Shown one piece after another: positions 22,980-55,568 of a stretch of DNA of 64,000 nt (the first letter of the stretch is position 1; each line of letters begins with the position of its first letter). Source of the stretch: Pyropia yezoensis (lineage: Eukaryota > Rhodophyta > Bangiophyceae > Bangiales > Bangiaceae); NCBI GenBank assembly GCA_009829735.1, contig CM020619.1, positions 33,520,283 to 33,584,282 of the forward strand, written 5' to 3'. The notes below the pieces were generated by a model. That model saw nothing but the letters and a program-made list of their open reading frames with translations, was not told the DNA's origin and made no database searches. A program made the translations under genes and the position numbers.

Positions 22980-22981
22980 TT

Positions 22982-28903: not shown

Positions 28904-30694
28904 TCAGTAACCCCGGTGCCCGTAGGGCTGGGACCCATCATGGTATCGAGGGCCATGTCCTCCACCTCCGTATGCGGCTTCGGCTGCGCCCCGGAGGGAC
29001 AAACTCGGGATCTGCAACATGGTATCCATGTTAGCTCTCCCGAGTTCTCGGTCCAGGCGCTCGGAGAGCGCCGACTGAGATAGTAGTGGCAACGCCACCG
29101 GCGGAATATCCCGCCAGTCCCGACGTGTGGTGACAATCGCCGCCATGTCGTTAGCCAGGCTCGTGTAGGCCCGACATAGCCCCATGACGAGGGAGTCTTC
29201 GACGGCATCCCCAAGGGATGGGGGGGGTGGATCAAAGACCCGCCCCAATGCCGCTACGGTAGTACCCGGGATAGGTCGAGGCATCGCCAAAGGCGGACCG
29301 CCCCAACGGAAGGAAGCCACTGGCTCAGGGACCGTTGCCCGCCGTCCGCTGGGCGACCGAACCTCCTCACCGGGGGGATAGTTCCCCCGAGGGGGCGCTC
29401 CAAAGGAACGCCCAGAAGATGACGCGCCTTGAGCACGACTCCCCCTCGGGGAGTTCGGCCGCATAGACGGGCCATACCGCTCCTGGCCAAACCCTGGGAG
29501 ACAAGGCCCCTCCTCCTCCATGCGGGGTTCTGGGTTGGGCACCCGCGTGGCGGCCATCAACCCCGGAGGGTAGGGTAGCTCCTCGTGACCCAACCCCTCT
29601 TCCAAGAAGAGAACACCGTCCGCGGAGAAAGACTTCGCGCATCGTACCAATGCACGAGCTCGAAGAGGAAGACCCAGGAAGGAAGGCAAGGCCTTTTGAT
29701 GGACCTTCTCGATGAGATGGAGAAGTGCACGCAGGTATGCCGCGGAGTCAGGGTTACCCTGACACAACACGTCAATGGGGCTCTCTTGGAGAGCCCGCAG
29801 AAGGGGGATCGGAACAAGCCAAGCATGTCCGTAGTACAACCCCGAAGACAGCAAGACGTCGGCTACCTCCACCAGCCAGCAGGCGTTCAGAGCTGCTCTG
29901 GCCGCCGAGTCCGGGCCGTCGGCCATCAGCCGACTCCCCCGCACGGCAACTAAGTTGCCAATACGCGCGGCCATGCCGCGTGGAACCTCGTAGTCGCTCC
30001 ACCAAGGGGGGATGACCGGGTACAACTTGAGGCGCTCTCCGTGGGAGAAGCACTCTACCTCCCGCTGCTCTGCGCTGGCGAAGATGCCATGGCGCCGACG
30101 GTGCCGATGCTCCGTTAACGCTTGGCGTAGGAAGTAACCGCGAGGGCGTCGCCCAATGACCGGTAACGGACCCGGGTAATACGCCAGGTCGAAGACCGGC
30201 ATTGTCCCCGGCGGTAACGGCGGGCGCGAGCACGCATCATCCAGCTGCTGAGCGAGCTTCCAATCCTCCGCAAAGCGGAGCACGGGGTAGTCCGTCGGCG
30301 TCCCAATCGGGACCTCGTAGAGGTCCGGGTAGAGATGGCGGAATGTTGTCCACACCCCCGTCATGCGGCGTGGATCCACCTGAACCCACCGGTCGGTGAC
30401 CGCGCCGGGATGCGGGTGAGGGTAGGGCCACTCCTTGTGAAAGGGGATGACTTCTCCGAAGGGGCCCGGCCCCCGTGAGTCCGCCGACGGCGGAATAGGT
30501 ACCTCGGCCGGCGAAGCCGGACCGGAATCACCCCGGCCACTCCCGGCTTCGTCCATCGGGACGTCGTCGGGAGAGGCCGGTGGCAAACCCGCGTCCGAAG
30601 GGCCACGGGGGGAGGAAGGAGCCGGAGGGGAAGCGGACCCGCCACCCTCACCCATGGGAGCGGGGTTGCCCAACTGCCCCGACGGGGTAGCCAT
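28904..30694 (-). CDS. Family A antisense ORF (596 codons), uncharacterised conserved protein
   Basis: It lies between integrase and the 3' LTR on the strand opposite gag-pol. ATG 30694 (MATPSGQLGNP) to a stop at 28904-28906; the frame is open further upstream to 30847. A Pro/Ser/Gly-rich N-terminus is followed by a folded-looking middle (about residues 120-370: PVIPPWWSDYEVPRGMAARI, ALNACWLVEVADVLLSSG) and a helical C-terminal segment (AYTSLANDMAAIV). The middle aligns with the antisense protein of family B (YPKKPAWWPQGEVPYG, ATQWLLEVMSTWLS), and EEGLGHEELPY matches REGLGIGDYP. No known domain recognised; no zinc finger or enzymatic motif seen. Conservation across two families argues that it is translated. 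Role unknown. Confidence 0.75.
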   Translation of the reverse strand: MATPSGQLGNPAPMGEGGGSASPPAPSSPRGPSDAGLPPASPDDVPMDEAGSGRGDSGPASPAEVPIPPSADSRGPGPFGEVIPFHKEWPYPHPHPGAVTDRWVQVDPRRMTGVWTTFRHLYPDLYEVPIGTPTDYPVLRFAEDWKLAQQLDDACSRPPLPPGTMPVFDLAYYPGPLPVIGRRPRGYFLRQALTEHRHRRRHGIFASAEQREVECFSHGERLKLYPVIPPWWSDYEVPRGMAARIGNLVAVRGSRLMADGPDSAARAALNACWLVEVADVLLSSGLYYGHAWLVPIPLLRALQESPIDVLCQGNPDSAAYLRALLHLIEKVHQKALPSFLGLPLRARALVRCAKSFSADGVLFLEEGLGHEELPYPPGLMAATRVPNPEPRMEEEGPCLPGFGQERYGPSMRPNSPRGSRAQGASSSGRSFGAPPRGNYPPGEEVRSPSGRRATVPEPVASFRWGGPPLAMPRPIPGTTVAALGRVFDPPPPSLGDAVEDSLVMGLCRAYTSLANDMAAIVTTRRDWRDIPPVALPLLSQSALSERLDRELGRANMDTMLQIPSLSLRGAAEAAYGGGGHGPRYHDGSQPYGHRGY

Positions 30695-31334
30695 GACTGA
30701 CCGCTCTCCAATGGGGACGGGGGGGGGGAAGAGTGTGGATGCCACCCCCACCCTTAGGGTGAGGGCGAGGGAGACGCACGCAGACCGGTGGCAGCGAGGA
30801 GGAGGAGCGGGAGTGGTGGGGACGGAGGCCGTCCTCGCGGCGAGCACCCGTTGCCGCCCCCCTCGCTACGATCCACCCCTCTCGGGTGGACAGGCGGCCC
30901 TCTTCTACCCCTCAGCCCCCTGACAAGGGGCCGAGGGGGGGGTGCACAAGAGGCCCCTAAACCCCTCGCTCCCGGCTACGCCAGGAGAGCCAGTCCCCTC
31001 ACGGCCCCACCCTGTGCGGGCAGGGCCGTGGTAGGCGACAGGCCCTATCCTTGCTGCGTCCCCCACCCCTCAGGTGGTGGTTTTGAGGGGGGTGTCTCCA
31101 CACATTACCCCCCCTGTCGTTCAACGGGGGCGGACACGATTGTCTCCCAAGGGGAGAAAATCATGGGACCGAGCTGACCCAGTGTCATCCACTCCCCCCG
31201 TGGGGATGGGTACACTCGGCGGTGGGGACGGCATGCTGCCAATTGGCATTGCCTCCACCGCCCTTTTGGCGCTGGGGGGGGAGTATTCCTCAGTGTCTGG
31301 GTCGCGGGTCGCAACCCCCTGGAGGTGTGGGAAG
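30695..31334 (+). other. Family A region between antisense ORF and 3' LTR
   Basis: 640 bases rich in G and C, with short palindromes such as TCTCCCAAGGGGAGA (near 31144). The last bases before the LTR (GGAGGTGTGGGAAG) form a purine-rich tract fit to prime plus-strand synthesis. Antisense transcripts would begin here or in the LTR. Confidence 0.6.
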
Positions 31335-32031
31335 TGTAGGGACCCTATGGGCCCTCCACGTGGGGGGACCTCGTAGAGATCGCGTGGTACCCCTGCGTCC
31401 ACCTTCCTAGTGAGGAGGACGGGGCCGACTTGGCCCCTCGGGATTTTACTGGCTTCCGATTGGTCCCCTCCTATGGAGGCGGGACCGGGTCGCCGTTGAT
31501 TCTGGGGCCCATTTTGGGATTTCCAGTGTATGGGAATTTTCCCCCCCCGACCGGAATTGGCCTTTGGTCAATATTCCGGGATGGGATGCATTTGGGGTTT
31601 GGATTTTGATTGTGTATTTTGCGTGATTGGGAGATTGGAGAGATCCTCTTGAGTGTTGGCACTGATGTCCGGCGGGGCTCCTCTTCCCCGTATCTTGGAG
31701 ATTCCTGCCCCGCTGGCAGGGATGATCCGTGGGGGAGGGGGCCCTCCGGACATGTTGGGGGGTTCTGATTGGCCCGCACGTGGCCCGGTGTGGAGGGTTG
31801 CTGGGTGCGGGTGAGAGAGGGTAATAGTGTGCGTGGGGGTGCGCGTTGCTTCCCCCTTCGAAAAAGACAGAATTGCGTGTGCTTGAACACTGTCGTCCTG
31901 GTCGCGGATCCCCGCGTGAACCAGCCAGGCGGTCGGCGGTTCTGTATCTCTCCGGTCTCCCCGCGTTCTTGGTGGGTCGTTTCTCTGTGTGTTCTGGGTG
32001 CTAGGCGCCTAAGGTACGTAAAACCACTACA
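31335..32031 (+). repeat. Family A 3' LTR (697 bp)
   Basis: Near-identical copy of 22285-22979, followed by the target duplication TTTCA at 32032-32036. Confidence 0.95.
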
Positions 32032-38419: not shown

Positions 38420-38619
38420 CAGGGTAGGCTTGTGCTGCACGCCCCTTTTTGGGGGGCGTCCAGGCGTGACACGCCCTAAACACGCCCCAAGCACGCCCCC
38501 AAAACCTCATCCCGCCTCTGCACGCCCCAAGAATCTACCGCTAATTCCCCCAGATAAACAAGAACTACGCACGAGCACGGCCGCCGAAGCCCCTGCCCAG
38601 CACTGGGCACTGTCTAACA

Positions 38620-39067
38620 CAAGTGGGAAGAATTGGCGGCTGCCAGAGAAACACGGATGGGGTAGTCGTCGTCCTCGCCAGCACGGCCACGGCAATCACA
38701 GTCGGCGTACCGGCACCTGTCCCGCTGCCGCCGCCCCCCCCACCGCTGCCGCCGCCCCCCCACCCCCGCGAGCGGGGCGCAGGCGGACACGCGGCGGCAC
38801 AGCGGACCGCACGCGGAGCACGTCAGCGTCAGGATGGGTGACGGGCGGCGCCGGCCCGGGCGGTACCAGCCGGCATCGCTAGAAGGGCCCACCACGCAGA
38901 CGCGTCCAGAGGCTCACGCGGAGGCCACGGCCAACGCGGCTTTTTTGAAAGCCTTGGGCACACGGGGCGACCCCGTGTGAACCAATCCCAGGAAGTCCGA
39001 CCAACGTGTGGTCGCTGGAGATGGACGACGTCGTCGAGGACACCCAAAAAACGCCAGGATGGCACTG
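38620..39067 (+). repeat. hAT internal inverted repeat, left arm (448 bp)
   Basis: Nearly identical, inverted, to 42966-43413. It contains a C-rich microsatellite-like part (CCGCCGCCCCCCC) and ends next to GGCACTG. Confidence 0.92.
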
Positions 39068-39245
39068 TAATCGAACATTTCAGTACTCTAGTTATGTACT
39101 TCTTAATTGATGAATTTTGTGCGTTTGTTCTATGTATTGCCTTACGGCTTTTCCTCGGGATTTTTACAAGAATCTATGCATGTTATGCAGACACGAGCGC
39201 GTCCGACGGCGGCGCGAGCGAAAAGATGTCCAAATTCTATTCCTC

Positions 39246-42110
39246 TCACTGACCCTCCGCGCGACGCAGCCCGTACACTCTCATCGCATCGGCCAAGTAC
39301 CTCTCGGCGTCAAACACACGGCTGAGCAGTGTCCGCGCGTCCACCCTCGCGGCGGATGCGTGAGCAGGCCCTTGCCCAGCGACAGGCGCGGTGGCGGTGC
39401 CGCCGCCGTTGCCCGCATTGCCACCGTGAGGCGTGCCGTAATGATGCACGCGGCCGCCAGTGCTGCCGGTCTGCTCGCCCCCGCTGGCAACGGGCACCGC
39501 CTGCTCCACAAACCGCTGGCACGCGCCGATGAGATCCACCGCCGTCAAAGACTCCGTCTGGGCAGCGGCGCCCTCGTCGGCATCCTCACCTGCAGGCGGG
39601 TTTCCGTCCGGCCCACCGCAGAGCGCCCTCTCTGCATCTAGCCCCTTCTACAGCTCCTTGGCGGCGGTGTCCAAGTCAAGACCCGCGTCCACCTCGCTGC
39701 CCACGTCCGCTGCGCCGTCGGTGTCGTCGCTCGGGTCGGAGAAAGCTAGGCCTTGCCCGCCGTCGGCTGCCACAGGCGCTCCACGCTCATCAGCACCGCC
39801 CGCTTCGCGCTGCATGCTGCTCCGCGGTACCACCGTCGATCGAGTGGTCGCCGCGGCCGCCACCTCCGCTCGCATGCGGCAAGCAATCTTAGTCGTCTTG
39901 GACGGACGCCCAGGGTCCAAGCGGCTGCTGGTGGGGGTGTTGGCCAGGCCCATTCCAGACCAGACTCGTTCCAGCTCTGCGGCGTGCGCCGGCATGGTCA
40001 GCAGGGGACAGGTCACCTCTGCCAAAGGAGTTCCCGCGTAGGTAGGTCGTAGACGTCAGCTTAAAACGGCACACACTCGACCCGTGGTGCCCAGTCCGCT
40101 GCCCATGTGGGACGACATGACCGACCGAGGCCCGCCCACCAAATAGGCCATGAATGCCTGTACGGTGGCGCACGTGTCGTGCTCCGCAGTCGCCGCGCTG
40201 GACCTGGGCGGCCCAATCCGCGAGGCGAGCGACAGAAACATCGGTACAAGCTGCGCGCTCCGGGTGAAGCTGCGAGGTCCCACCTGCAGGCCAGAAGTGT
40301 GCCGCACCTGGTCCAGCACGTGCGCCAGCACCAGCAAGGGTGCCTCGTAGTACTTGTCCAATCGCCACTGTAAGTAGCGCAGCACAGACATGCAGAGCTG
40401 GTGCGTCTCGGAGGACACAGATGGGTCAGCCGCCACCGCAAACAGGGGCGCCAACGTTGCGCCCGACCCATTCGGCGACACAGAAGCCGTCTCCTTCTTC
40501 AGCTACAGGAAGTATGCGTAGAGCCGCCCGAAGGATGCGCACACGTCCGCCAAGCCGCTGCCACGCCGCTCCACTAGCCCGATCTCGATGACGACCGGAC
40601 GCAACATCCTGGACATCGCCTCGGCCATGTGCGAAATCAGTCGACTGCGCAACAGGTCCACCACCTCAGCCCCTTGGTTTGTCCCTAGGAGAGACCCGTC
40701 GTCGTTGTGCTTGTGCCCGAGCGCGACGAGCGCCCCCCTCAGCTCCAGGATCCTCCGGACCCTCCCGAAGTGGGAGTACCACCGCGTCTCTCCGCGTTTG
40801 ACGAAAGCCAGCCGCGGCCCGTTGCACTCATGCATACAGACCTCCAGCTTGGCCATCCACTTGGTGGACAGCGAGAAGAACTTGACCACCATGCTCATCT
40901 TGGACGCCGCGGAGCGCATCGAGGGGTGGTTGACCACGAATCCCGTGACGAGGTTCAGCTGGTGAGCACAACACGCGACCATCATCAGGCACTGGTGCAG
41001 CCTGCTGATCGCCTGCTTGGCGCCACCATTGGGGCTCGCCCAGTCGCTCACGAAGCCAATCACAGTGGAGCGGCCCAGGTCATTGGGTAGCCCAGACGGA
41101 AGCGGCAAGAGGAAGTTGTTGTCCTGCGCCGCCGCTTGCAGCTCTCGCTCGATTTCGGCCTGGAACCGCGCCGCCGTCTCGGCCGTCGAGGTGATATCCG
41201 TGGTGTCCCGGAAGTCCATGCCAGGAGCCCCGTCCGCTTGACCGACCCAACTGGCCAGCATTCCCAAGATCTTACGCCCCCCCCTGCTCTTCCATCCATC
41301 GAAGGAGAGAGCCACGAACACGCCCTTGGCATACGCGGCAGTGGAGATGGCCACCAAGGACGACAGAACGCGCTCCAGCACAGTGGTCGACATCGACCGA
41401 CGGCTGGGCACAGCCTTCATGCCAGCCACCCACTTCTTGAGGAAGGCACAGAAGGGCGGCGAGTCGAGGATGCTGAAGGCTATCGAGCAGTACAGCAGCA
41501 CGCCCAAGAGCTCCTGCTCAAGCTCCCGGGTCATGCGCGCGGAGAAAGGTCGGGCGACGTGGGCGTCCATCGGCCCGACCGTCGCAGCCTCGGAGCTGGA
41601 AGCGCCGGAGCCCTTGCTGCTCTTTAGGTGCTTCCGGGCCACATGGGCTCCCGCCCGGGCGGCCGTCATCGCCTCGTGGTCTCGCGGCACGTGCCTGCAA
41701 CCGAGTATATGCTTGCACATCAGGTCCATCCGTCCCCGGATAGGCTCCTTAGCACCTGTCGCCTCCTCGCAGAGAAGGCAGAACGCCTGTCGGTACCGCG
41801 AGTTCTGGCTCCAGAGCAGCGCATCGTCCAAGAAGAAGCCCCAAACACGATGTGTCTTCTCGCGCTTGCGGCCTGTGTCGGCCGCAGAGGAAGGCAGCGC
41901 TGTGTTGTCACCACCAACCAGCTCCTCCAGCGCAGATACACCAGAGCCGCTACCACGGAGTAGGCGGCCACCCCCGTCCGCTGCACCACCAACCCCGATG
42001 GCAGGTACGCTCCCACTGGCTGGCCCAGCACCACCCCCGCCGACTGGGCCGCCGTCACGGCTCGTCGAAGCGCCGCCCCCGACGACATGACGGCCAGAGA
42101 TGCCCATCAT
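39246..42110 (-). pseudogene. hAT transposase with BED zinc finger, three in-frame stops
   Basis: One frame runs about 955 codons from ATG 42110 to TGA 39246-39248. Residues about 86-143 form a BED-type finger (Cys111-x2-Cys114 ... His134-x5-His140, in FCLLCEE and MCKHILGCRH). The catalytic part includes VALSFDGWKSRGGRK and VGFVSDWASPN, followed by the hAT signature CCAHQLNLV. The C-terminal dimerisation part includes PAHAAELERVWSGMG. Three stop codons interrupt the frame: TAG 40503-40505, TGA 40056-40058 and TAG 39648-39650. The sequence on either side stays in the same frame and protein-like, so the decay is recent. Short introns are a less likely alternative. Confidence 0.82.
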
Positions 42111-42965
42111 CGCGGCGTAGGCCCCGACAGCAGGCTAGCCAGTACCGCGTGGCCTGCCACCATCTGGAGGGACGGTAGCGGCACTACCGCCGCCGCCCTC
42201 GTACCGGTCGCCGTCTTCGGTCCCATCGGATGTGGGCAGGCGGAAGGAAAAAGCTCGGCACGGGGTGAGCGCGCCTGCGATCTCCGACTTTTGTGTCGCA
42301 GGGAGTGCGTCACCGTCGTCCATGGCAGCGCCGGCGGGCAGGGTAAGGTAGGAGAAAGGGTGCGCACCTAACGGGTGGCTCAAGAGGTGCGGGCGGCCGG
42401 CGCCGGGGAGATGCCAATGTCGGTGGAAACGGCGTGGGGAGGCAGTGCACGAAGGCAAGCACGCGGTGGAGGTGGCCGCTCAGAGCTCGTGAGCACCAAT
42501 GCCGGACCTGGTCATCGAGGTTAAGTACTGTGCAATGACGTTTTGCACACGTGCACGGCACCCGCGACCCGCGCAGCAGTCGATCTCTGGGAAACGAAAG
42601 CGGCGGGTGGGAGGCTAGCTATGCCTAGATTCACTGTTCACGGTTGCGCCCAGCGCCATAACAGAGCGGCTCACAGTAGCTTTCAACAAGCGGCAGCGCC
42701 CGAGGGCATGCACCCAGTCTCCTGTTCTCCTAGCGTGACGTGTTTTCACAAGAGCGAGGCCGCCCTGCACCGTGTCTGAGGCAGGCAGCCAATTCATTAG
42801 TGCATGGCTAGGTCATCAGTGCGTGGACAAGCCATCAGAGCGATGCCATGTCAGTCGTCTGGTCAGATCACCAGCGAGAGCCATTGCAAGTCATACGCAC
42901 AACGGCCGGCTATCACACAAGCCTGGGGGGAGAAAACAATGAACAACAGCTCATGTTTTTCGCTA
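42111..42965. other. hAT region upstream of transposase
   Basis: 855 bases between the transposase start and the right inverted-repeat arm. No second gene recognised; it would hold the transposase promoter. Confidence 0.45.
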
Positions 42966-43413
42966 CAGTGGCATCCTGGCGTATTATGGGTGTCCTCGAC
43001 GACGTCGTCCATCTCCAGCGACCACACGTTGGTCAGACTTCCTGGGATCGGCTCACACGGGGTCGCCCCGTGTGCCCAAGGCTGTCAAAAAAGCCGCGTT
43101 GGCCGTGACCTCCGCGTGAGCCTCTGGACGCGTCTGCGTGGCGGGCCCTTCTAGCGATGCCGGCTGGTACCGCCCGGGCCGGCGCCGCCCGTCACCCATC
43201 CTGACGCTGACGTGCTCCGCGTGCGGTCCGCTGTGCCGCCGCGTGTCCGCCTGCGCCCCGCTCGCGGGGGTGGGGGGGCGGCGGCAGCGGTGGGGGGGGC
43301 AGCGGCAGCGGGACAGGTGCCGGCACGCCGACTGTGATTGCCGTGACCGTGCTGGCGTGGACCAAGACCACCCCATCCGTGTTTCTCTGGCAGCTGCCAA
43401 TTCTCCCCACTTG
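42966..43413 (-). repeat. hAT internal inverted repeat, right arm (448 bp)
   Basis: Reverse complement of 38620-39067 with few differences. The outer part of the transposon continues from 43414 to 43438 and resumes at 62197 after the family B block. Confidence 0.92.
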
Positions 43414-43438
43414 TTTTGATCGCAGTGCTACTAGTACA

Positions 43439-43907
43439 TGTGGCAAAAACCACTTGCACACACGACACCCAAGTTGGGGCGGTGTGCAAGGGCTGCCTCC
43501 CGTGTCGGGGGAACCGGAAGAAGTGCAAGTCGCACACACTCTGTCCCTGTTGTGGGGCAAACCCCCCACTGACAAACAAGAGGATGGTGTGTGGTCCAAC
43601 AGTTTCTTGGTCGGGACGGGGACGCAGGGCCAAGCCCCGCTGTCCCTCCCCTTATCCCCCCAGGGTCCCCTCAGAATCTCGCCACTCAGAATCTCCCACC
43701 CCAGCACCTGCCCACCGGGCCACACGAAAATTCAAGACGATAAATGCAGAAAACCCTCAAATCCAAGTTGGATTTACTACTAAGCTAACTATCCCAAACT
43801 TAGGGAATATGGACCCAAATGCAGGGGGAGGAACGGGTCAGGCTAGTGGCCTGCCGCCCCTTGCATGGCCCGTGTTGCCCCCTTACCTGGGGGTCAATAC
43901 TGCCACA
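43439..43907 (-). repeat. Family B outer-copy 3' LTR (469 bp)
   Basis: TGTGGCAAAAACC...ACTGCCACA. It shares variants TCCCCTTATC and GGTCCCCTCAG with the LTR at 47344, marking them as one element's pair. On its inner side a purine-rich tract (read on the minus strand, GAGGAGAGGGGAG) abuts it. Confidence 0.93.
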
Positions 43908-44245
43908 CTCCCCTCTCCTCAGTTCCGACCGACCCGGTCGGCCCTGTGAGGGGGTGCGTAAACGCACGTCTCGGCGTTGGGGGCGCGACTTGCTGTCCCC
44001 CATCGAGTACGTAACACGGATGTGGAGGCAGTCACGTTGACCGCCCCTCTCCTCGAGCTTGCCCACTCGGCAGCTTGCTCTCCCTGGTTCACACTTCACC
44101 TTCACCACCACCTCCCCTTCACCTTCCACGGGGCCGCCCCACGCTGGGGAGGCCACCCGTATACCCACGATCCGAGTCCCCCTCAACTCGAGGCGGGTCT
44201 CGTGCCGCGATAGCCAGAGCGTCTCTCCCCAACTTGGGGAGAGCC

Positions 44246-45337
44246 ATGGCGACCCCGGGAGTGGGGACGGACTTTCTAGATGAGCGTATGGAGGACACCA
44301 CCTACGGTGCAGCACCCCCCGGGACTTCCGGCGGGGGCTCCGCGATCGCTCCGGGGGATGGGACTCCCGCGTCACCCGGCTTTGGGTTGACGGCGGGGTC
44401 TCCCCCGGAGGCGGGACAAGTTGTCCCGCGTGAGGCCTTGGGGCGGTGGTTTTACCCCGCTTGGCCTGTCTATGAGGAGGGGTTGACTGTTCTTCGCTGT
44501 GGCCGACTTGGCGCAGCGATGGGTCGGGTATGGGACCGCCTACGGGAGAAGTATCCCCGTAGGGTCGAGTTCCCTGCCGGCTTCAGGACGGACCATTTTG
44601 CCTTCCTGGACGATGAGGAGGTTGAGGACGTTCAGCGTGCCAAGGCCATGGTGGACCGCGGGGGAACTATCCCGGGTCCCGGCGACTTGCCGACCTTTAC
44701 TTGGGACGCGGTGGCAGCTCGCCGCCCGTACCTCCACGAGGCCGATCCGCACACTCATCACTTTGATGTGCGGATGGAGAAGAACTTCCGGCGAGGTCCC
44801 TACTTGGTGACCTCGGCTCAACTTGAGTTTCCTCAACAGTCTGCTGCCAGCAAGGAGCAGTACTATCCGAAGAAGCCCGCGTGGTGGCCTCAAGGTGAGG
44901 TCCCCTACGGGTTCCCGGCGTTGCTACCACGGTTGCTTGACCACTTCGGCTCCGTCATGTTGACGGCCGGCCCTGATCACCTGGTGTGGGCCATGTTGGC
45001 CACCCAGTGGCTCCTCGAGGTCATGTCGACCTGGTTGTCTTGTGTTCAGCGGCGGGGGATGCTCTGGCATCTCCCCCTCCGGCTTATCCAAGGTTTGGAA
45101 CAGCTCACCCCTCAGCTAGTTACTGAGGGGTGCTCATCAGGACGACTCCCTCTACTTGAGGAGATGCTCCGCCTCCACAAGTTTATCGAGTGGGAGAGCA
45201 TTGAGCACAAGTTGCGCCGCCCCACTCGTGGGCCCAAGGACGATGGCGCACTTCGCCAGTTCGTGTGGGTCGCTCGTGACCTTCACGACGGCCGTGTGGT
45301 CCTACGAGAGGGGTTGGGCATCGGAGACTACCCGTAG
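44246..45337 (+). CDS. Family B outer copy, antisense ORF 1 (363 codons)
   Basis: Opposite in strand to gag-pol, starting 338 bases from the 3' LTR. ATG 44246 (MATPGVGTDFLDERM), directly after a 21-bp perfect palindrome. A folded-looking middle includes EFPAGFRTDHFAFLDDEEVE, YPKKPAWWPQGEVPYG and ATQWLLEVMSTWLS, and it ends with REGLGIGDYP. It is related to the middle of the family A antisense protein. No known domain. Nearly identical to 53625-54716. Confidence 0.75.
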   Translation: MATPGVGTDFLDERMEDTTYGAAPPGTSGGGSAIAPGDGTPASPGFGLTAGSPPEAGQVVPREALGRWFYPAWPVYEEGLTVLRCGRLGAAMGRVWDRLREKYPRRVEFPAGFRTDHFAFLDDEEVEDVQRAKAMVDRGGTIPGPGDLPTFTWDAVAARRPYLHEADPHTHHFDVRMEKNFRRGPYLVTSAQLEFPQQSAASKEQYYPKKPAWWPQGEVPYGFPALLPRLLDHFGSVMLTAGPDHLVWAMLATQWLLEVMSTWLSCVQRRGMLWHLPLRLIQGLEQLTPQLVTEGCSSGRLPLLEEMLRLHKFIEWESIEHKLRRPTRGPKDDGALRQFVWVARDLHDGRVVLREGLGIGDYP

Positions 45338-45388
45338 GCCCCGGGGGTGGATCGCCACACTGCGCCACCCCCGGACAAGGCCATAGTT

Positions 45389-46189
45389 ATGGCTGTGCCC
45401 TCATATGACGACCATATGACTCAACCTACTGCGGGGGCCCCAAGTCGGGGTCGCAGTTACACCCGGGTACCGCCACCTCGGCGTGCCCCTCCGCTTCCTC
45501 CTGTCCCCTACCAGCCGCACGGGGACATTCCGATTAGCGTGGCCGTGGAGTCATCCACCCCGGTGTCCCCCAACTTGGGGGCCACCCTCCTGACGGTATA
45601 CCCCAAGTTGGTGTTACCGCCCACGCCTCTATCCTCACAGATGATGATCACCACGTTGGTGCGCACCATTTCCTGGTTGGCCGCGTCGACCGCAACCCTT
45701 CAAAGTTCCGAGACTCCTCAACTTGAGGAGCGCGTTCGTTCTGCAGTGGCGACCGCGAGTTGCAAGTCGGTGGCGGAGTTTATGACGGCCGAGTTGGCTC
45801 GCATTGGGGCTATTATGCCCCAGCCAGCCCCACTTGGGCGTGGCAAACGTCGCGCGAGCCGGGCATACTCGCCTCCTCGCCGTCGTCGCCGACACTCGCG
45901 GTGCTCTTCCCCCGTGTCGGAAGACGAGTTGTCTTACTCCGTCTCGGAGTCCTCGACTCCGCCAGAGTCGGAGTCGGTCCGGCGTCTGCGTCGCAAACTT
46001 GCGCGCAAGACCTGGCAGAAGGGCAGCCGCGGTCGTCGCCACTTGCGCGACCGTGAGGGGCGCGGCGGTTCCGACTTGGAGCCGCCGGCCCCGCCGACTG
46101 GTGGGGAGCGTTATCGCCGTGGGTCTCTCCGCTCGCCTCCACGTGAGGGCGAGGGCCGTGGGGTTGGAGAGTCTAGCATGCATGCCTAG
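45389..46189 (+). CDS. Family B outer copy, antisense ORF 2 (266 codons), Arg/Ser-rich
   Basis: Follows antisense ORF 1 at once; first ATG 45389 (MAVPSYDDHMTQPT). A Pro-rich start is followed by a helical segment (ISWLAASTATLQ ... LEERVRSAVATASCKSV) that resembles the C-terminal part of the family A antisense protein. It then has an Arg/Ser-rich tail (SPPRRRRRHSR, SEDELSYSVSESS) like RS domains, which suggests RNA binding or nuclear targeting by analogy only. In family A one ORF covers both parts. Ends about 110 bases from the end of integrase. Confidence 0.65.
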   Translation: MAVPSYDDHMTQPTAGAPSRGRSYTRVPPPRRAPPLPPVPYQPHGDIPISVAVESSTPVSPNLGATLLTVYPKLVLPPTPLSSQMMITTLVRTISWLAASTATLQSSETPQLEERVRSAVATASCKSVAEFMTAELARIGAIMPQPAPLGRGKRRASRAYSPPRRRRRHSRCSSPVSEDELSYSVSESSTPPESESVRRLRRKLARKTWQKGSRGRRHLRDREGRGGSDLEPPAPPTGGERYRRGSLRSPPREGEGRGVGESSMHA

Positions 46190-46300
46190 TTGGCAGCTGC
46201 CTTGGTTGTGAGAGTGTGAGGGTTAGGGCTGTAGTTAAGAGCCACTCTGCGTACCACTTCGACTTGAAGCATTCTCTTGGCACTGTTGCTCGGCCTTCCC

Positions 46301-47343
46301 TCACGTTGAGGGAGGGCTGTTAGGGTCTATCTCATTCCGGGCACAGTACGCCCGGACCTTCTCAGCGGGAAGGTCCTCCACATACTCCCACGTATCATCC
46401 TTGGCTTTGTAGCCAAACCAACGCACCCTCAACATGAGGCGGTCAGTGTCTTCATCCCATCCGTGGTCGATGAACTTATCGACCACGTACTCCTGCGGGC
46501 CCTGTTTGGCCGCAGGCAGTGAGGGGAGGCGCCACGCTTCCAAAGCACGCGCCCAAGCTGGGTCGCCTGCAGGCGGTGGTGCAACTTTGACCACGTCCTG
46601 TCCGATCACTGTGCGTACCCCATCGTCACTTCCGATGGTGAAGCGCCGCCCATCAGTACGAAGGACCTGGTACGGCCCCTTCGTCTGGAGTACCAACTTA
46701 CCCCCAGTTGGGGTGTGCGAGTGTACCAGCACGCAGTCACCCTGCTCGGGGACGTGCTTAGCATTGCGCACCTTTTTGTCAAAGATACGCTTGTAGCGTT
46801 TTTGTGCTTTGTCCATCTCAGCCCTGACTTTAGGGATGAGGTTTTCAAGCCTAGCAGCGAACTCCGCCGTACTCTCAGTAGGAGTAGGCGTACTGCCACC
46901 CTCCTCCCTAGTTGGGAGCGGCCGCCGCACAGCAATAGACCGCACACGACGGGGGGTCACAAAAGCGAGGGGTACTTCCCCGGTAGATGAGTGAACCTGC
47001 GAATTGTAGGCAGTAGTAAGAATAGATATGTATTGGTCCCCCGTTTTCACGTGCTCACTCACATAGTGGCGCAGCTGCCTAACAATAGTTTTGTTGAAGC
47101 GCTCCACCTGCCCATTAGTTTGTGGGTGGTAGGGGGTGGCATAGTTTGCCTTAACCCCCAACATATCCAGCACTCCCTGAAACAGTACAGACGCAAATTG
47201 CGGTCCATTGTCCGATAGTGTACTATCCGGAATGCCATACGCGGCAACCCAGTGATCTAGGAAGGCTGACACGACCGACATGGCCGTGATCTCTGCCAGT
47301 GGGATCGCTCTGTAAGTTTCGTGAAGCTGTCACAGATGACCAG
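46301..47343 (-). mobile_element. Family B outer copy, integrase end of pol
   Basis: The minus strand holds the integrase core remainder (TLSDNGPQF, HPQTNGQVERFNKTIVRQLR) and a chromodomain-like C-terminus (LRVRWFGYKAKDDTWEYVED). It ends at 47343, where the inner-copy insertion junction ACCAG lies; the matching 5' part of pol is at 49874-52818 in the opposite orientation. Confidence 0.9.
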
Positions 47344-47812
47344 TGTGGCAATATTGACCCCCAAGTAGGGGGGCAACACGTGCCATGCAAGGGGCGGCAG
47401 GCCACTAGCCTGACCCGTTCCTCCCCCTGCATTTGGGTCCATATTCCCTAAGTTTGGGATAGTTAGCTTAGTAGTAAATCCAACTTGGATTTGAGGGTTT
47501 TCTGCATTTATCGTCTTGAATTTTCGTGTGGCCCGGTGGGCAGGTGCTGGGGTGGGAGATTCTGAGTGGCGAGATTCTGAGGGGACCCTGGGGGGATAAG
47601 GGGAGGGACAGCGGGGCTTGGCCCTGCGTCCCCGTCCCGACCAAGAAACTGTTGGACCACACACCATCCTCTTGTTTGTCAGTGGGGGGTTTGCCCCACA
47701 ACAGGGACAGAGTGTGTGCGACTTGCACTTCTTCCGGTTCCCCCGACACGGGAGGCAGCCCTTGTACACCGCCCCAACTAGGGTGTCGTGTGTGCAAGTG
47801 GTTTTTGCCACA
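47344..47812 (+). repeat. Family B 5' LTR of the outer copy (469 bp), inverted relative to its partner
   Basis: On the plus strand it reads TGTGGCAATATTGACC...TTTTTGCCACA and is followed by the primer-binding site TGGTGGAGCAGCAGGGG. Its variants match the LTR at 43439 rather than those at 52819 and 61729. Confidence 0.9.
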
Positions 47813-47834
47813 TTTGGTGGAGCAGCAGGGGACA

Positions 47835-47864
47835 GAGGTAAACTTTACCTCCGGGTGCACCCGG
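47835..47864 (+). other. Two adjacent perfect palindromes in the family B leader
   Basis: GAGGTAAACTTTACCTC (47835-47851) and CCGGGTGCACCCGG (47851-47864) lie between primer-binding site and gag. The same pair occurs in the inner copy (61679-61708). In retroelement leaders such hairpins can serve RNA dimerisation or packaging; that role is inferred here. Confidence 0.6.
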
Positions 47865-47931
47865 GTGTAGGGGGCCCTCTGTCTCAGAGGAACGGTGGAC
47901 TTGGACCGCGTCATACGGATCGTTAGCCAAC

Positions 47932-49877
47932 ATGGCTAGTTCGGACCCCCCGTCGTCCGGGGAGTACACGAGTGACGCACGTACTTCAGTGCCTTTGAAT
48001 ACTGGTGAGACACAGGTGGGTTTACCTGGGGTCGCAGAGGGACTAGAGGTCCCTCAAGCCAGCAGGACTGGAAGTGCGGGCGGGCAACAGGCCACCCCGA
48101 CTCAGTCGGGAGTTCACTCGGGTGACACTTCTGATGTGGGTGGGCCGAAGTCTGGCCACCGTGTGGTACACTCAACGGGAACGTCCCAAGGGGTGAGGAC
48201 TGTCCCCGCGGGTTCCACTCGGGTTGGAGCCAACTTTGGCTTGGAGCCGTCGCCAAATAGGCTTTCGGAGGACGGCGGACCTCCGTTGGTCGGCGGCGGG
48301 CTCGCGCCCATGCCCCCGGTTGAGACCCCTGAGGAACGTGGTTACCCCTCAGGTGGACTCCCGGAGGCGGACCGAGACTCAACTGGAGTCGTCAATCTCC
48401 TCCTCGCGGAAACTGTCCGTCGGGAGGCGACCAATGTGTTGCGGCAGACTTTGCCGGACCTGGTGGTCACGATGACGAAAACAATCCTGAATCAGATTGT
48501 GGCGAGTTTGCCAGATGGTCTTAATGTCCAGACCGGATCGGGGCTTTCGAGCCCGCAGGCGCAGGGGGAATCCCTCCTCACGCCGAACTCTGGTCGCCCC
48601 GAACAGGGGGCGACACCTGTGACTCCCAACGAGGGAGCCACACCATACTCGGTGGGGCGTACGCCCTTCATGGGGGAGTTCCCCCCGGGAACGCCGGCGG
48701 CTACACCAAGCGCGCCGCGCCGGACTACAGGCACTGAGGGTCAACTTACCCCAGTGCCACAGCGGCTGTTCCCTCAACGTGAGGTGCCGCCAAAGATCCA
48801 GGTAGCCAACCCGGTCTACCAGAGGATCTTTGACTGTGAGACCTATGCCCTCCACAACAAGTCGGTGGTGTATGGTCCTGACCAGGCCCGAGCCATGGGC
48901 CGTGCCAAGAAGAATGCACTTCACTCTTTTGGGCACAAAGCGGAGTGGGATGGAACTCCCCCCCTCCGTGTCTTTGAGTTCCTACCTTGTTTCACAAAAG
49001 CCTGTGACGACAATGCCATAAGTGAAGGCATGGCTTTTTACATGCTACAGGAGTTTACGAAGGGCGACCTGCGGACAGAACTTATGTCCGTCATGCCCAG
49101 CTCCTCAAGTGGAGGCGCTGGGGAGGTGACGTCTTATTTGGAGCTCGTCAACTGGCTGTTGAGAGCCATGGTTGATGAGGCAGCGTTGGCTTCCAAGTCG
49201 AGGAGTTTACGCAAGCCCATCAGGAAGGGGCGGAGGACGAGTTGTCCTTTACGGAGCGAGTCCGTGAGCTCAACAATCTTTGTGGGTTTCTTCATCCACA
49301 AGCTGTGGTGAAGAGTCGGTTTGTGGAGGGACTCCATTGGTCAGTCCGGATGGAGACCCGGGAGCATAACACTGCCCGGGCGACCGTGGCCGAGTTGGCT
49401 AGGTTCGCCTATCGCGGAGGCGAGGCCTACCGCAAGTTGCGGGTCGAACAACGCGAGGAGCGTCAGGCCGAGTTGGCCAAGGAACGGGAGGAGGCGCGCC
49501 AGGCCAGAGAGCTGAGGCAGGCGCGCCGAATCCGCAAGGAGAGGGTGGTAGCTGCCGTGGGAAATTCCCAGGGTATCTTTTCGTCTTCCCCGGTTGGGAA
49601 GATCCCTCCGGGAACTGACCATCGGTGTTGGAACTGCAACTCCGATGGACACTGGGCATATGATTGCCCCAAGTTGAGTAAACGCATCCAACAACTTGTT
49701 AGGAATGCGAGTAAGAAGTCGGCTACGAACGAAGTACGTTCACGCCGCGAGGGTGGGTCTCGACCGGTGGTGGCGGTCGCCACACCCTCGGCGAAGGGGG
49801 CGGACACGTCGTCCTCGGACTCGTCGTCTTCCCCTTCGTCCTCAGATTCGGACGCCAAGTCGGTGGGAAACGAATGA
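47932..49877 (+). mobile_element. Family B outer copy gag region
   Basis: Begins MASSDPPSSGEYTSDAR. Ser/Pro/Gly-rich N-terminus, capsid-like region related to family A gag (DCETYALHNK, GEVTSYLELVNWLLRAMVDE), and zinc knuckle CWNCNSDGHWAYDC, then an Asp/Ser-rich tail. It contains about one break compared with the inner copy. Confidence 0.9.
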
Positions 49878-52818
49878 CCGTTGGAGCTGGTCGTCCGAAG
49901 CTCACAACGGCAGCCTCGGCCAAGTGGGTCAAGAGGACGAACCAACCGTGCCGGATACTGCGGCGACCTAAGGGAGTCCGCCCACCTCGGGTAGGACTCC
50001 CCAAGAACGTAAACCCACGTCGGGTCATCGCGGTGCTGACGGGTGAGAACTTCCAGGTGGCTGGACGGGTGCAACTTGCCCCCGGCCGCGCCTGTTGTGC
50101 CCATATCGTACTTGATACCGGGTCAGGAGCCTCCTTGATACGCGAGTCGCTATTACCAAAGGAGGTGAAGCTCCAACGCTGGAGGTCCAAAGCTGACCAT
50201 ATGATTGACATCAATGGTGGGGTACTTCCCATCGTTGGTGCCGTGACCCTACCAACTAGGTTGGGGACCCATGAGGTCGACGTGACCTATGGTGTAGTTG
50301 AGAATATATCGGTACCCCTGCTTCTGGGTACCCCTTATGTCGTAACACAAGTGCCTTTGATTTGTGGCCCTGAGTACTGGGTCAAGTTGATGAATGGGGA
50401 GACTATCCCCATCCTTGGTAAGGGAAAGTCTGTGGCTCCTGTGACAGTCTCACAGTCGAAGCCTGTTTGCTCTGTGAGGGAAGGGTTTACTGCTACCCTG
50501 CGTCTAGCCCGTAAAGTCACGTTGCCCCCCAACTCGGTGGCGCACGTTGATGTTGTAACTGATTATACGGGGAACGGGTTGGTACACCCTTACCCCCGTC
50601 TTGCTCGCAAGCACCAAGTGCATGTTGCCCTTGGCACGATGGACTCCAAAGCCGGAGTCCCGAGGAGGATCCAGGTGATGAACCTGAGCTCGTCGCCCCA
50701 GTACTTCAAGTCGGGAGCTAAGTTCGGCTATATCGACCAACACGAGGGACCGGTAGTAGCGGTCACCCTCGACGCGGGCGCAAGTAGCGACCCGAAGTCC
50801 GGAAAGGAGAAGCGTCAAGCCAAGTCGGCCGCCTCTCCTCGGCCCCATGTGAACATGGAGGGTGTCCCCCCCAGGTTGAGGGTTCAAGTTGAACGCCTCT
50901 TGGACCAATATCACAAGTTGTGGGATGGTCAATTGGGACTCATGATAGCCACCCAACACCGGATCGAGTTGAAGCCCGGTGCACCCCCTATACGCCAACA
51001 ACCGTATAGGGGAGGACCTCGTTCAAGGGCCCTCGTTAAGGAGCAAGTTGCTCGCATGGAGGCCCTCGATGTGATCGAGGCCAGTAACGCCGAGTGGGCG
51101 AGTCCGGAGGTTATCGTCCCCAAAGTTGATCGGACCCCCCGGTTCTGTATCGACTACCGTAAGCTCAACGAGAGCACGGTGAAGGACAGTTATCCCCTAC
51201 CTAGGATGGACGACTGTCTGGACTCTCAGGGGGAGGCGAACGTGTTCTCTACCCTGGACTGTAACGCGGGGTATTGGCAAATTCCCATTGCCCCGGAGGA
51301 CAGGCATAAAACTACCTTTACCTGTCACTGTGGTACCTACCAGTGCAAGCGTCTGCCGTTTGGTCTGTGTAACGCGCCGGCAACTTTCCAGCGCGCTATG
51401 GACATGATTCTGGCCGGAGTACGGTGGCAGATCTGTCTTGTGTACCTAGACGATATCATCGTGTTCTCCCGAAGTCCGGAGGAACACATTGGCCATCTTG
51501 GCCAGGTAGTCAAGCTACTTGCTGACGCCGGTGTGTCACTGAAGGCGAGTAAGTGCCACCTCTTCACTCAAGAGGTAGAGTACTTGGGACATGTTGTCCG
51601 TCCGGGGCGTCTCAGTGTCAACGAGAAGAACTTGAGGGCCATCCGTAAGGCTCAGTATCCCCGGACCCAGACCCAGATGAGGAGCTTCCTCGGGATGTGT
51701 AACGTGTACCGACGTTTCACCAAGGGCTTCGCCAAGGTGGCGAAGCCGTTGAATGAGTTAGTGAGCTCAACGCTACCGAAGAACCTGCCTCCCCCAAGTC
51801 GGGTGGAGCAGGAATCCTTTGAGACTCTTCGGGACCTTCTGCTGAAGCCCCCTATCCTGGCTATTCCCAGATTGGGAGGCCACTACATCCTGGATGTGGA
51901 CGCTAGCTACGACCAACTTGGTTGTGTGTTGTTTCAGCAGCAGCCGGACAAGGAGTACTTGCCGGTGGGATACTTCAGTAAGGGGCTGAACTCGGCCGAG
52001 AAGAACTACGGAGTCACCGAGTTGGAAGGACTCGCAGTGGTGTGGGCGGTGACGTCACTTCGTCACTACCTAGAGGGTGAGAAGTTCCTCATCCGCTTTG
52101 ACCACCGCGCGTTGCAATTCATCTTTAAGACGGACTGTACGAACACTCGTCTCAATCGGTGGAGGGTGCGACTGGCACCCTTCAACTTTGACATTGAGTA
52201 CCGACCTGGCAGGCAACATGCCCTTGCCGACGGCCTCTCTCGGGTACCTACCGAGGGGCTGGACACTAACCCAGTCGATGAGGACATCCCCATCGGGGGG
52301 GTAGTCACGCGCTCGGGTCAGGTGTTGAACCCCGAGGCGCCAGGGAACAAGAAGTACTTGCCCCTGTCCCTGGACGAGGTGGTGACGGCCCAGGCCGAGG
52401 ATCCCTTCTGCAAGTCGCAGAGGGATACACTGGATACAGTGGCGGAGACGCGTTTCTTTCTGGGAGACGATGGCCTCCTCATGAGGAGGGGGGTATTCCA
52501 GGGGACCGAACAACTTGTCGTCCCCGCATCCCTCAAGGACAGTATCCTTGAGAGGGAGCATAATGCTCCCACGGGTGGACACCTGGGGTCTAGTAAACTG
52601 TACCAGACCCTGAGGACCAGGTACTACTGGCCGTCCATGGTGGTGGACATCTACAGTTGGGTGGCTGCCTGCACAAGTTGTGCACAGAACCGTCTGATGG
52701 AACGGCGGCCTAGTACGGCTATGCTATTGTTCCCGGCCAAGGAGCCCTTCGCCGCGTTGGCGATGGACATCCTTGGGCCACTGCCAGTGACCGAGGAGGG
52801 CAACCAGTACCTCCTGGT
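49874..52818 (+). mobile_element. Family B outer copy pol, 5' part
   Basis: Begins MTVGAGRPKL, overlapping the gag end by four bases. Protease LDTGSGASLIR; reverse transcriptase CIDYRKLN and VYLDDIIVFSRS; RNase H LDVDASYDQL; integrase zinc-binding HNAPTGGHLG...ACTSCAQ and start of the core (MDILGPLPV). It stops at the inner-copy junction CTGGT (52814-52818). Confidence 0.92.
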
Positions 52819-53286
52819 TGTGGCAATAACCACATGCACACACGGCACCCAAGTTGGGGCGGTGTGCAAGGGCTGCCTCCCGTGTCGGGGGAACCGGAAG
52901 AAGTGCAAGTCGCACACACTCTGTCCCTGTTGTGGGGCAAACCCCCCACGGACAAACAAAAGGATGGTGTGTGGTCCAACAGTTTCTTGGTCGGGACGGG
53001 GACGCAGGGCCAAGCCCCGCTGTCCCTCTCTTATCCCCCCAGGGTCCACTCAGAATCTCGCCACTCAGAATCTCCCACCCCAGCACCTGCCCACCGGGCC
53101 ACACGAAAATTCAAGACGATAAATGCAGAAAACCCTCAAATCCAAGTTGGATTTACTACTAAGCTAACTATCCCAAACTTAGGGAATATGGACCCAAATG
53201 CAGGGGGAGGAACGGGTCAGGCTAGTGGCCTGCCGCCCCTTGCATGGCACGTGTTGCCCCCCTACCTGGGGGTCAATACTGCCACA
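52819..53286 (-). repeat. Family B inner-copy 3' LTR (468 bp)
   Basis: TGTGGCAATAACC...ACTGCCACA, abutting CTGGT of the outer pol on the left and the purine-rich tract (minus strand) on the right. Confidence 0.93.
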
Positions 53287-53624
53287 CTCCCCTCTCCTCA
53301 GTTCCGACCGACCCGGTCGGCCCTGTGAGGGGGTGCGTAATCGCACGTCTCGGCGTTGGGGGCGCGACTTGCTGTCCCCCATCGAGTACGTAACACGGAT
53401 GTGGAGGCGGTCACGTTGACCGCCCCTCTCCTCGAGCTTGCCCACTCGGCAGCTTGCTCTCCCTGGTTCACACTTCACCTTCACCACCACCTCCCCTTCA
53501 CCTTCCACGGGGCCGCCCCACGCTGGGGAGGCCACCCGTATACCCACGATCCGAGTCCCCCTCAACTCGAGGCGGGTCTCGTGCCGCGATAGCCAGAGCG
53601 TCTCTCCCCAACTTGGGGAGAGCC

Positions 53625-54716
53625 ATGGCGACCCCGGGAGTGGGGACGGACTTTCTAGATGAGCGTATGGAGGACACCACCTACGGTGCAGCACCCCCCG
53701 GGACTTCCGGCGGGGGCTCCGCGATCGCTCCGGGGGATGGGACTCCCGCGTCACCCGGCTTTGGGTTGACGGCGGGGTCTCCCCCGGAGGCGGGACAAGT
53801 TGTCCCGCGTGAGGCCTTGGGGCGGTGGTTTTACCCCGCTTGGCCTGTCTATGAGGAGGGGTTGACTGTTCTTCGCTGTGGCCGACTTGGCGCAGCGATG
53901 GGTCGGGTATGGGACCGCCTACGGGAGAAGTATCCCCGTAGGGTCGAGTTCCCTGCCGGCTTCAGGACGGACCATTTTGCCTTCCTGGACGATGAGGAGG
54001 TTGAGGACGTTCAGCGTGCCAAGGCCATGGTGGACCGCGGGGGAACTATCCCGGGTCCCGGCGACTTGCCGACCTTTACTTGGGACGCGGTGGCAACTCG
54101 CCGCCCGTACCTCCACGAGGCCGATCCGCACACTCATCACTTTGATGTGCGGATGGAGAAGAACTTCCGGCGAGGTCCCTACTTGGTGACCTCGGCTCAA
54201 CTTGAGTTTCCTCAACAGTCTGCTGCCAGCAAGGAGCAGTACTATCCGAAGAAGCCCGAGTGGTGGCCTCAAGTTGAGGTCCCCTACGGGTACCCGGCGT
54301 TGCTGCCACGGTTGCTTGACCACTTCGGCTCCGTCATGTTGACGGCTGGCCCTGATCACCTGGTGTGGGCCATGTTGGCCACCCAGTGGCTCCTCGAGGT
54401 CATGTCGACCTGGTTGTCTTGTGTTCAGCGGCGGGGGATGCTCTGGCATCTCCCCCTCCGGCTTATCCAAGGTTTGGAACAGCTCACCCCTCAGCTAGTT
54501 ACTGAGGGGTGCTCATCAGGACGACTCCCTCTACTTGAGGAGATGCTCCGCCTCCACAAGTTTATCGAGTGGGAGAGCATTGAGCACAAGTTGCGCCGCC
54601 CCACTCGTGGGCCCAAGGACGATGGCGCACTTCGCCAGTTCGTGTGGGTCGCTCGTGACCTTCACGACGGCCGTGTGGTCCTACGAGAGGGGTTGGGCAT
54701 CGGAGACTACCCGTAG
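53625..54716 (+). CDS. Family B inner copy, antisense ORF 1 (363 codons)
   Basis: Nearly identical to 44246-45337 and in the same place relative to the LTR; same ATG after the same 21-bp palindrome. A few substitutions (for example PEWWPQVEVPYGYPAL against PAWWPQGEVPYGFPAL) leave the frame open. Uncharacterised protein, shared with family A. Confidence 0.75.
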   Translation: MATPGVGTDFLDERMEDTTYGAAPPGTSGGGSAIAPGDGTPASPGFGLTAGSPPEAGQVVPREALGRWFYPAWPVYEEGLTVLRCGRLGAAMGRVWDRLREKYPRRVEFPAGFRTDHFAFLDDEEVEDVQRAKAMVDRGGTIPGPGDLPTFTWDAVATRRPYLHEADPHTHHFDVRMEKNFRRGPYLVTSAQLEFPQQSAASKEQYYPKKPEWWPQVEVPYGYPALLPRLLDHFGSVMLTAGPDHLVWAMLATQWLLEVMSTWLSCVQRRGMLWHLPLRLIQGLEQLTPQLVTEGCSSGRLPLLEEMLRLHKFIEWESIEHKLRRPTRGPKDDGALRQFVWVARDLHDGRVVLREGLGIGDYP

Positions 54717-54767
54717 GCCCCGGGGGTGGATCGCCACACTGCGCCACCCCCGGACAAGGCCATAGTT

Positions 54768-55568
54768 ATGGCTGTGCCCTCATATGACGACCATATGACT
54801 CAACCTACTGCGGGGGCCCCAAGTCGGGGTCGCAGTTACACCCGGGTACCGCCACCTCGGCGTGCCCCTCCGCATCCTCCTGTTCCTTTCCAGCCTGACG
54901 GAAACATCCCGATCAGCGTGGCCGTGGAGTCATCCACCCCGGTGTCCCCCAACTTGGGGGCCACCCTCCTGACGGTATGCCCCAAGTTGGTGTTACCGCC
55001 CACGCCTCTATTCTCAGAGATGATGATCACCACGTTGGTGCGCACCATTTCCTGGTTGGCCGCGTCGACCGCAACCCTTCAAAGTTCCGAGACTCCTCAA
55101 CTTGAGGAGCGCGTTCGCTCTGCAGTGGCGACCGCGAGTTGCAAGTCGGTGGCGGTGTTTATGACGGCCGAGTTGGCTCGCATTGGGGCTATTATGCCCC
55201 AGCCAGCCCCACTTGGGCGTGGCAAACGTCGCGCGAGCCGGGCATACTCGCCTCCTCGCCGTCGTCGCCGACACTCGCGGCGCTCTCCCTCCGCGTCGGA
55301 AGACGAGTTGTCTTACTCCGTTTCGGAGTCCTCTACCCCGTCGGAGACGGAGTCTGTCCAGCGTCTGCGTCGCAAACTTGCGCGCAAGACCAGGCAGAAG
55401 AGTAGCCACGGTCGGCGCCACTTGCGCGACCGTGAAGGGCGCGACGGTTCCGACTTGGAGCCGCCGCCCCTTCCTACGAGTGGAGACCGTTATCGGCGTG
55501 GGTCTCGCCGCTCGCCTCCACGTGAGGGCGAGGGCCGTGGAGTGGGAGAGTCTAGCATGCGTGCCTAG
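54768..55568 (+). CDS. Family B inner copy, antisense ORF 2 (266 codons), Arg/Ser-rich
   Basis: Same layout as 45389-46189. The Arg/Ser-rich tail differs at many scattered codons between the two copies (RRHSRRSPSASEDE against RRHSRCSSPVSEDE) while the frame stays open. It ends 111 bases from the pol stop of the opposite strand. Confidence 0.65.
   Translation: MAVPSYDDHMTQPTAGAPSRGRSYTRVPPPRRAPPHPPVPFQPDGNIPISVAVESSTPVSPNLGATLLTVCPKLVLPPTPLFSEMMITTLVRTISWLAASTATLQSSETPQLEERVRSAVATASCKSVAVFMTAELARIGAIMPQPAPLGRGKRRASRAYSPPRRRRRHSRRSPSASEDELSYSVSESSTPSETESVQRLRRKLARKTRQKSSHGRRHLRDREGRDGSDLEPPPLPTSGDRYRRGSRRSPPREGEGRGVGESSMRA

What the first reader, a model, noticed from the sequence alone, without database searches (positions are those of the whole stretch)
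28904..55568. Conserved antisense-encoded protein in two Ty3/gypsy families
Family A (28904-30694) and both family B copies (44246-46189; 53625-55568) carry, between integrase and 3' LTR, a long ORF on the strand opposite gag-pol. The proteins are related: YPVIPPWWSDYEVPRG aligns with YPKKPAWWPQGEVPYG, WLVEVADVLLSSG with WLLEVMSTWLSC, EEGLGHEELPY with REGLGIGDYP, and both start MATP. The ORF does not overlap pol, so it is not a coding shadow. Antisense ORFs are known in some plant retrotransposons and in deltaretroviruses, but I recognise no known family here. It could be an accessory protein, for example regulating expression or host silencing. In family A it is one ORF; in family B it is two consecutive ORFs, the second with an Arg/Ser-rich tail.
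Basis: partly seen in the sequence, partly recalled or inferred. Interest (0 to 1): 0.87.

Follow-up and report, generated by a model that had tools for sequence, protein, structure and literature searches.

The report
Antisense accessory gene in seaweed retrotransposons
Several families of jumping genes in what appears to be the edible red seaweed Pyropia carry an extra protein gene on the strand opposite their usual genes, and natural selection has preserved that protein although it matches no catalogued family.

Summary
Host, inferred from scaffold sizes: Pyropia yezoensis. Family A and B elements carry an ORF antisense to gag-pol, between integrase and 3' LTR; the proteins are homologous (28% over 283 aa, E 4e-20). 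One detail is wrong: in B it is a single 647-codon frame; the "two ORFs" reflect one stop codon in the two window copies, absent at that site from 28 of 28 other copies read. The frame is under purifying selection: A1-A2 dN/dS 0.17, a B pair 0.05, 141 synonymous to 66 non-synonymous changes among intact B copies. Of 45 rows with an integrase listed within 6 kb, 43 are antisense; the other two are pieces of one unlike copy. No Pfam or PDB match. Antisense ORFs at this position are known in Retand, Grande and Boty elements, so the kind is known; this protein family and its red-algal occurrence appeared in none of my searches. Family A copies with a long open pol frame but a deleted ORF also moved recently, so it is not needed in cis. 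Most likely a trans-acting accessory protein; biochemistry unknown.

The parts
22285..22981 (+). 5' LTR of the family A element (end approximate), preceded by target duplication TTTCA at 22280-22284
23093..24817 (+). family A gag (574 aa; zinc-knuckle match below the curated cut-off)
24871..28824 (+). family A pol (RT, RNase H, integrase; chromodomain match below the curated cut-off), with one in-frame stop at 27586-27588
28904..30694 (-). family A antisense accessory ORF (596 aa, begins MATP)
31335..32031 (+). 3' LTR of the family A element, followed by target duplication TTTCA
43439..43950 (-). 3' LTR of the rearranged family B element (limits from repeat matches)
44246..46189 (+). family B antisense accessory ORF, copy 1: one frame with one stop codon at 45335-45337
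46301..47281 (-). integrase part of the rearranged family B element
47344..52818 (+). inverted remainder (5' LTR, gag, RT, start of integrase) of the rearranged family B element
52819..53329 (-). 3' LTR of the complete family B element (limits from repeat matches)
53625..55568 (+). family B antisense accessory ORF, copy 2: one frame with one stop codon at 54714-54716
55680..59663 (-). family B pol (1327 aa open frame)
61728..62239 (-). 5' LTR of the complete family B element (limits from repeat matches)

Best explanation
The ORF is an old accessory gene of a group of Ty3/gypsy elements, placed tail-to-tail with pol. SHOWN: in families A and B it is protein-coding under purifying selection; it is antisense to integrase in A, in a group 46-49% like A, in C and in B; copies without it have multiplied, so it is not needed in cis. 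INFERRED: it is transcribed from an antisense promoter between its start and the 3' LTR, or in that LTR. INFERRED: the protein (low-complexity N-terminus, conserved core at about residues 100-375, low-complexity tail that differs between families) acts in trans on the element's RNA, DNA or chromatin, regulating expression or nuclear steps for all copies that share it, and the copies that deleted it live on protein made by others. Trans action is better supported than nucleic-acid binding.
For: Selection: A1-A2 dN/dS 0.17; single-change codons 188 synonymous to 77 non-synonymous against 73 to 192 expected (P 1e-48); 20 distinct intact B sequences 141 to 66 against 60 to 141 expected (P 4e-31). 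Constraint approaches that of integrase in the same comparisons (0.10 for A1-A2, 0.03 for the B pair). Antisense placement: 43 of 45 rows with an integrase row within 6 kb; also L040, read directly. Spread over deep lineages. Loss in cis: four fetched family A loci keep only codons 1-79; at least 14 such copies; four of these lie beside integrase in open frames of 1342-1343 codons; one of those four has LTRs that differ by 2 in 690. Precedent: maize Grande gene23 is transcribed antisense from its own promoter and its product is nuclear (review PMC7264820, parts 1-2 of 3 read).
Against: No transcript or protein evidence. No usable fold: AlphaFold mean pLDDT 38.0 and 39.6, so the helical core is itself a weak prediction. 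The tail is basic in B (34 K+R to 16 D+E in the last 150 aa) but neutral in A (15 to 14). Deletion copies that still multiplied fit dispensability as well as trans supply. The one C pair is uninformative (dN/dS 0.87 overall; core nearly identical, ends misaligned). Group D is near neutral (0.64-0.69).
Confidence: 0.6

Rival explanations
1. The antisense transcript, not the protein, is the functional product: it pairs with gag-pol RNA and tunes copy number through small RNAs.
For: Tail-to-tail arrangement with a gap of about 80-110 bp could give double-stranded RNA; the review PMC7264820 raises the idea for plants.
Against: Selection acts on amino acids, which an RNA-only role does not explain. 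Both roles could coexist.
Confidence: 0.1
2. A gene captured once and now carried as a passenger without benefit to the element.
For: A homologue (group D) sits in a repeat of about 6.5 kb; 27 of 29 D rows had no integrase row within 6 kb. Deletion copies still multiply.
Against: A passenger should decay neutrally, yet constraint in A and B approaches that of integrase. No host homologue was identified, but not every match was examined.
Confidence: 0.12
3. An envelope-like or second structural protein expressed by an unusual route.
For: It lies where env-like genes lie, after pol.
Against: Wrong strand for env; no strongly hydrophobic segment (best 19-residue mean hydropathy 1.37); profile comparison with family A gag gives probability 0.3%.
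Confidence: 0.08
4. A distant relative of the plant TRP28 (Transposase_28, PF04195) antisense proteins, one accessory gene shared by plants and red algae.
For: Same place and strand in the element (PMC11963269). Any resemblance of the cores is recalled and comes from no call.
Against: No PF04195 match in the genome at E up to 10, in the ten members of alignment A1 or in eight core pieces. HMMER filters drop weak matches, so a very distant link is not excluded.
Confidence: 0.05

Closest known systems
Antisense additional ORFs of Retand elements with TRP28 / Transposase_28 (PF04195)
   Same: ORF antisense to gag-pol between pol and 3' LTR, function unknown, regulatory role proposed (PMC11963269: abstract, background, discussion, last part of results and search passages read)
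   Different: TRP28 is said there to occur only in flowering plants, and Retand is non-chromovirus; no PF04195 match here
Antisense ORFs of maize Grande (gene23), rice RIRE2, bean PvRetro13
   Same: Same position and strand; Grande's has its own promoter and a nuclear product (PMC7264820, parts 1-2 of 3 read)
   Different: Flowering-plant hosts; their sequences were not at hand, so no comparison was run
brtn of Boty-like elements in Botrytis cinerea
   Same: Antisense extra gene in a fungal element (named in PMC7264820; title of the original seen in the reference list of PMC8365987)
   Different: Fungal host; sequence not compared
HBZ-type antisense genes of deltaretroviruses
   Same: Antisense gene read from the 3' side of the provirus (as told in the two papers above)
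   Different: No comparison run

Membership tests
antisense ORFs between pol and 3' LTR (aORF-3R) | ORF lies between pol and 3' LTR | tested here: met
   both window families
antisense ORFs between pol and 3' LTR (aORF-3R) | antisense to gag-pol | tested here: met
   of 113 rows (77 A, 29 D, 7 B) 45 had an integrase row within 6 kb; 43 antisense, 2 (one D copy, 4-5 kb away) sense; 68 had none listed, both searches being capped
antisense ORFs between pol and 3' LTR (aORF-3R) | present in most copies of a family | tested here: inconclusive
   lists capped; at least 14 family A copies have lost it
antisense ORFs between pol and 3' LTR (aORF-3R) | conservation like that of other element proteins | tested here: met
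   dN/dS 0.17 and 0.05 against integrase 0.10 and 0.03
antisense ORFs between pol and 3' LTR (aORF-3R) | antisense transcription | not testable with these tools
   no expression data
TRP28 / Transposase_28 (PF04195) | match to the PF04195 profile | tested here: not met
Ty3/gypsy | RT and RNase H before integrase in pol, flanked by LTRs | tested here: met
chromovirus | chromodomain at the integrase C-terminus | tested here: inconclusive
   Chromo E 0.00098 in A and 0.048 in B, both under the curated cut-off
envelope-like ORF | sense orientation | tested here: not met
envelope-like ORF | transmembrane segment | tested here: not met
   hydropathy only, best 1.37 over 19 residues

The most novel reading that the evidence does not exclude
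One ancient antisense gene family has accompanied several deeply diverged Ty3/gypsy lineages of red algae, works in trans, and supports an ecology of helpers and cheaters: a family A subfamily with open pol that deleted the antisense gene and still multiplies on protein supplied by other copies.
Probability: 0.35. Interest if true: 0.7.

Novelty: new variant of a known kind. Interest (0 to 1): 0.55.

Why it matters
The review read here says that the function of antisense accessory ORFs of retrotransposons is not known (PMC7264820). This case has measurable purifying selection, many near-identical copies, and natural deletion copies beside full ones in one compact genome, so cis against trans action and the role of the protein become testable. 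It also carries the arrangement from flowering plants and fungi to a red alga, with a protein that is unrelated as far as sequence shows, which hints at repeated gain of antisense genes at the same place.

Tried and rejected
Chance ORF in GC-rich DNA and coding shadow of pol: rejected by the lack of overlap and the substitution pattern in six frames.

Two genes or programmed readthrough in B: rejected; 28 of 28 other copies read have a sense codon at the site.

Relatives elsewhere: none confirmed in viral contigs with two single proteins and one alignment, in prokaryote genome contigs, among PDB sequences, or above cut-off in Pfam. Three protein-database searches gave ten proteins, P0001-P0010, none with a name; their hosts are unknown to me.

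Fold: two AlphaFold jobs with 10 and 12 sequences gave mean pLDDT 38.0 and 39.6, so no fold search was run.

Papers: searches listed no report of an antisense ORF in red-algal elements; I saw titles and starts of abstracts for most. Neumann 2019 (PMC6317226) has no 'antisense', 'red alga' or 'Rhodophyta' in its main text (passages only). PMC5408684 was searched for passages only.

Gag-like origin: no support. C family selection: the one pair is uninformative. D: dN/dS 0.64-0.69, P about 0.05.

Full report
WHERE. The window is G000:C2:33520283-33584282 of an assembly of 107.48 Mb in 11 contigs. Contigs of 43.59, 34.33 and 29.39 Mb equal the three scaffolds of 43.6, 34.3 and 29.4 Mbp reported for Pyropia yezoensis (PMC7423979, passages read). 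The organism is therefore inferred, not given. That paper puts 48.0% of the genome in repeats, LTR elements predominating.

THE OBSERVATION. Family A is an element with a TTTCA target duplication and LTRs of about 697 bp, 99.1% identical; its pol frame has one stop. The antisense ORF 28904-30694 follows integrase by about 80 bp. Family B has the same arrangement at 53625-55568 in a complete element and at 44246-46189 in a rearranged one. The A and B proteins are homologous. The claim of two ORFs in B fails: the halves are one frame around one stop codon. In 28 of 28 other B loci read that codon is a sense codon, and 21 of the 28 are open to the usual stop. The 30 B loci read (28 plus the two window copies) are the best-scoring of 112 matches, so these proportions lean towards good copies.

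HOW COMMON. The A protein found 77 match rows, the first part of the B protein 112. Both lists are capped by the tool and are lower bounds; a copy can give several rows. Apart from the two window copies the 110 other B rows have 94-96% identity. I set ORF rows against an integrase search (107 rows). Of 77 A rows, 40 had an integrase row within 6 kb, each antisense and beyond the ORF stop; joined by hand they are 33 places; 37 rows had none listed. Of 7 B rows tried, 3 had one, each antisense; 4 had none listed. Of 29 D rows, 27 had none, and 2 rows of one copy had an integrase 4-5 kb away in sense and on the other side. Of 98 integrase rows that reach the C-terminal part, 33 had an ORF row in these incomplete lists. 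L040, whose integrase is not in the list, is antisense when read directly.

FAMILY. The proteins fall into lineages A (A1, A2), B, C, D and one seen only in other datasets, P0002-P0007. The tree warns that long branches meet, so the order among lineages is unsure. Identities of A to C, D and B are 32, 32 and 27% over the aligned parts. The integrases beside them rank alike: 83-90% for A2, 60-62% for a group whose ORF is 46-49% like A, 55-60% for C and 50-51% for B, which fits shared descent with pol. No relative was found in Pfam, PDB sequences, viral contigs or prokaryote contigs.

SELECTION. A1 against A2: dN/dS 0.17, and 0.06-0.20 in each 100-codon block after the first, which has 0.53-0.54. 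One B pair: 8 non-synonymous to 55 synonymous, 0.05. Among 20 distinct intact B sequences: 141 synonymous, 66 non-synonymous and 0 stop changes, against 60, 141 and 6 expected from the same base changes placed at random; the zero follows from choosing intact copies. Integrase has 0.10 for A1-A2 and 0.03 for that B pair. Within A1 the ORF gives 0.25-0.83, lowest against the older copy L008, as expected when young copies decay after insertion; integrase gives 0.22-0.25 against L008 and 1.42 for one young pair. Group D is near neutral at 0.64-0.69; the single C pair is uninformative.

LOSS. Four fetched family A loci, L044-L047, taken from those whose integrase had no ORF row, keep ORF codons 1-79 and the stretch to the LTR but not the rest. 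The junction is the same in the two translations read, and a probe across it matches the other two at 91-100%. The probe gives 69 rows, of which 14 cover at least 93 of its 103 residues at 78% identity or more. By coordinates, four of those 14 lie beside integrase rows at C1:30164417, C2:24195223, C1:26547536 and C2:2943338, which sit in open frames of 1342-1343 codons without a stop in the matched part; I did not read the RT part or gag of these copies. LTR pairs of three deletion copies: 2 mismatches in 690 (C2:24195223), 8 in 690 (L045) and 0 in 364, the last with a cut 5' LTR (C1:30164417). Two full copies: 2 mismatches and 4 gap positions in 701, and 5 mismatches in 672. Both kinds moved recently. 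The gene is not needed in cis; whether it is needed in trans is open.

MECHANISM. My best reading is a trans-acting accessory protein expressed from an antisense transcript, as others showed for maize Grande gene23 (PMC7264820). Shown here: coding and selection in A and B, antisense position, spread over lineages, loss in cis. Inferred: promoter, nuclear or nucleic-acid role, trans action. The basic Arg/Ser tail is a feature of B.

NOVELTY. [quoted passage not shown] None was listed for red algae in the searches over one open-access library. The protein is not TRP28 by profile. I call it a new variant of a known kind.

Noticed in passing
window 43439-52818: This B copy is one element split inside integrase, with the 5' LTR-gag-RT part inverted and 5 bp (ACCAG) duplicated at the join; its end abuts the 3' LTR of the complete copy. 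It looks like a self-integration product that recombined into a resident element (inference).
   Followed up: partly
L042, L048 912-7377, L049 (group D): A dispersed repeat of about 6.5 kb whose only recognised ORF is a homologue of the antisense protein core (29 rows at 47-100% identity); in the two 9 kb copies compared no LTR or long terminal inverted repeat was seen, and five frames of L048 gave no Pfam match above cut-off.
   Followed up: partly
L044-L047: Family A subfamily with most of the antisense ORF deleted at a shared junction, some copies with long open pol frames.
   Followed up: yes
window 29000-31946 against L039: A1 and A2 LTRs are 92-97% alike in 200 bp bins while synonymous divergence of most of the ORF is about 1 or more: LTR exchange between subfamilies, or strong constraint on the LTR.
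   Followed up: no
window 38616-43417: A repeat with 454 bp inverted ends (96%) holding a 535 aa ORF with a DUF659 match below cut-off; probably a hAT-like DNA transposon (class recalled, from no call).
   Followed up: no
window 4180-4674: Two 198 bp arms, 98% complementary, 99 bp apart.
   Followed up: no
window 21482-22204: Remnant of a distant integrase (23-29% identity) just left of the family A element.
   Followed up: no
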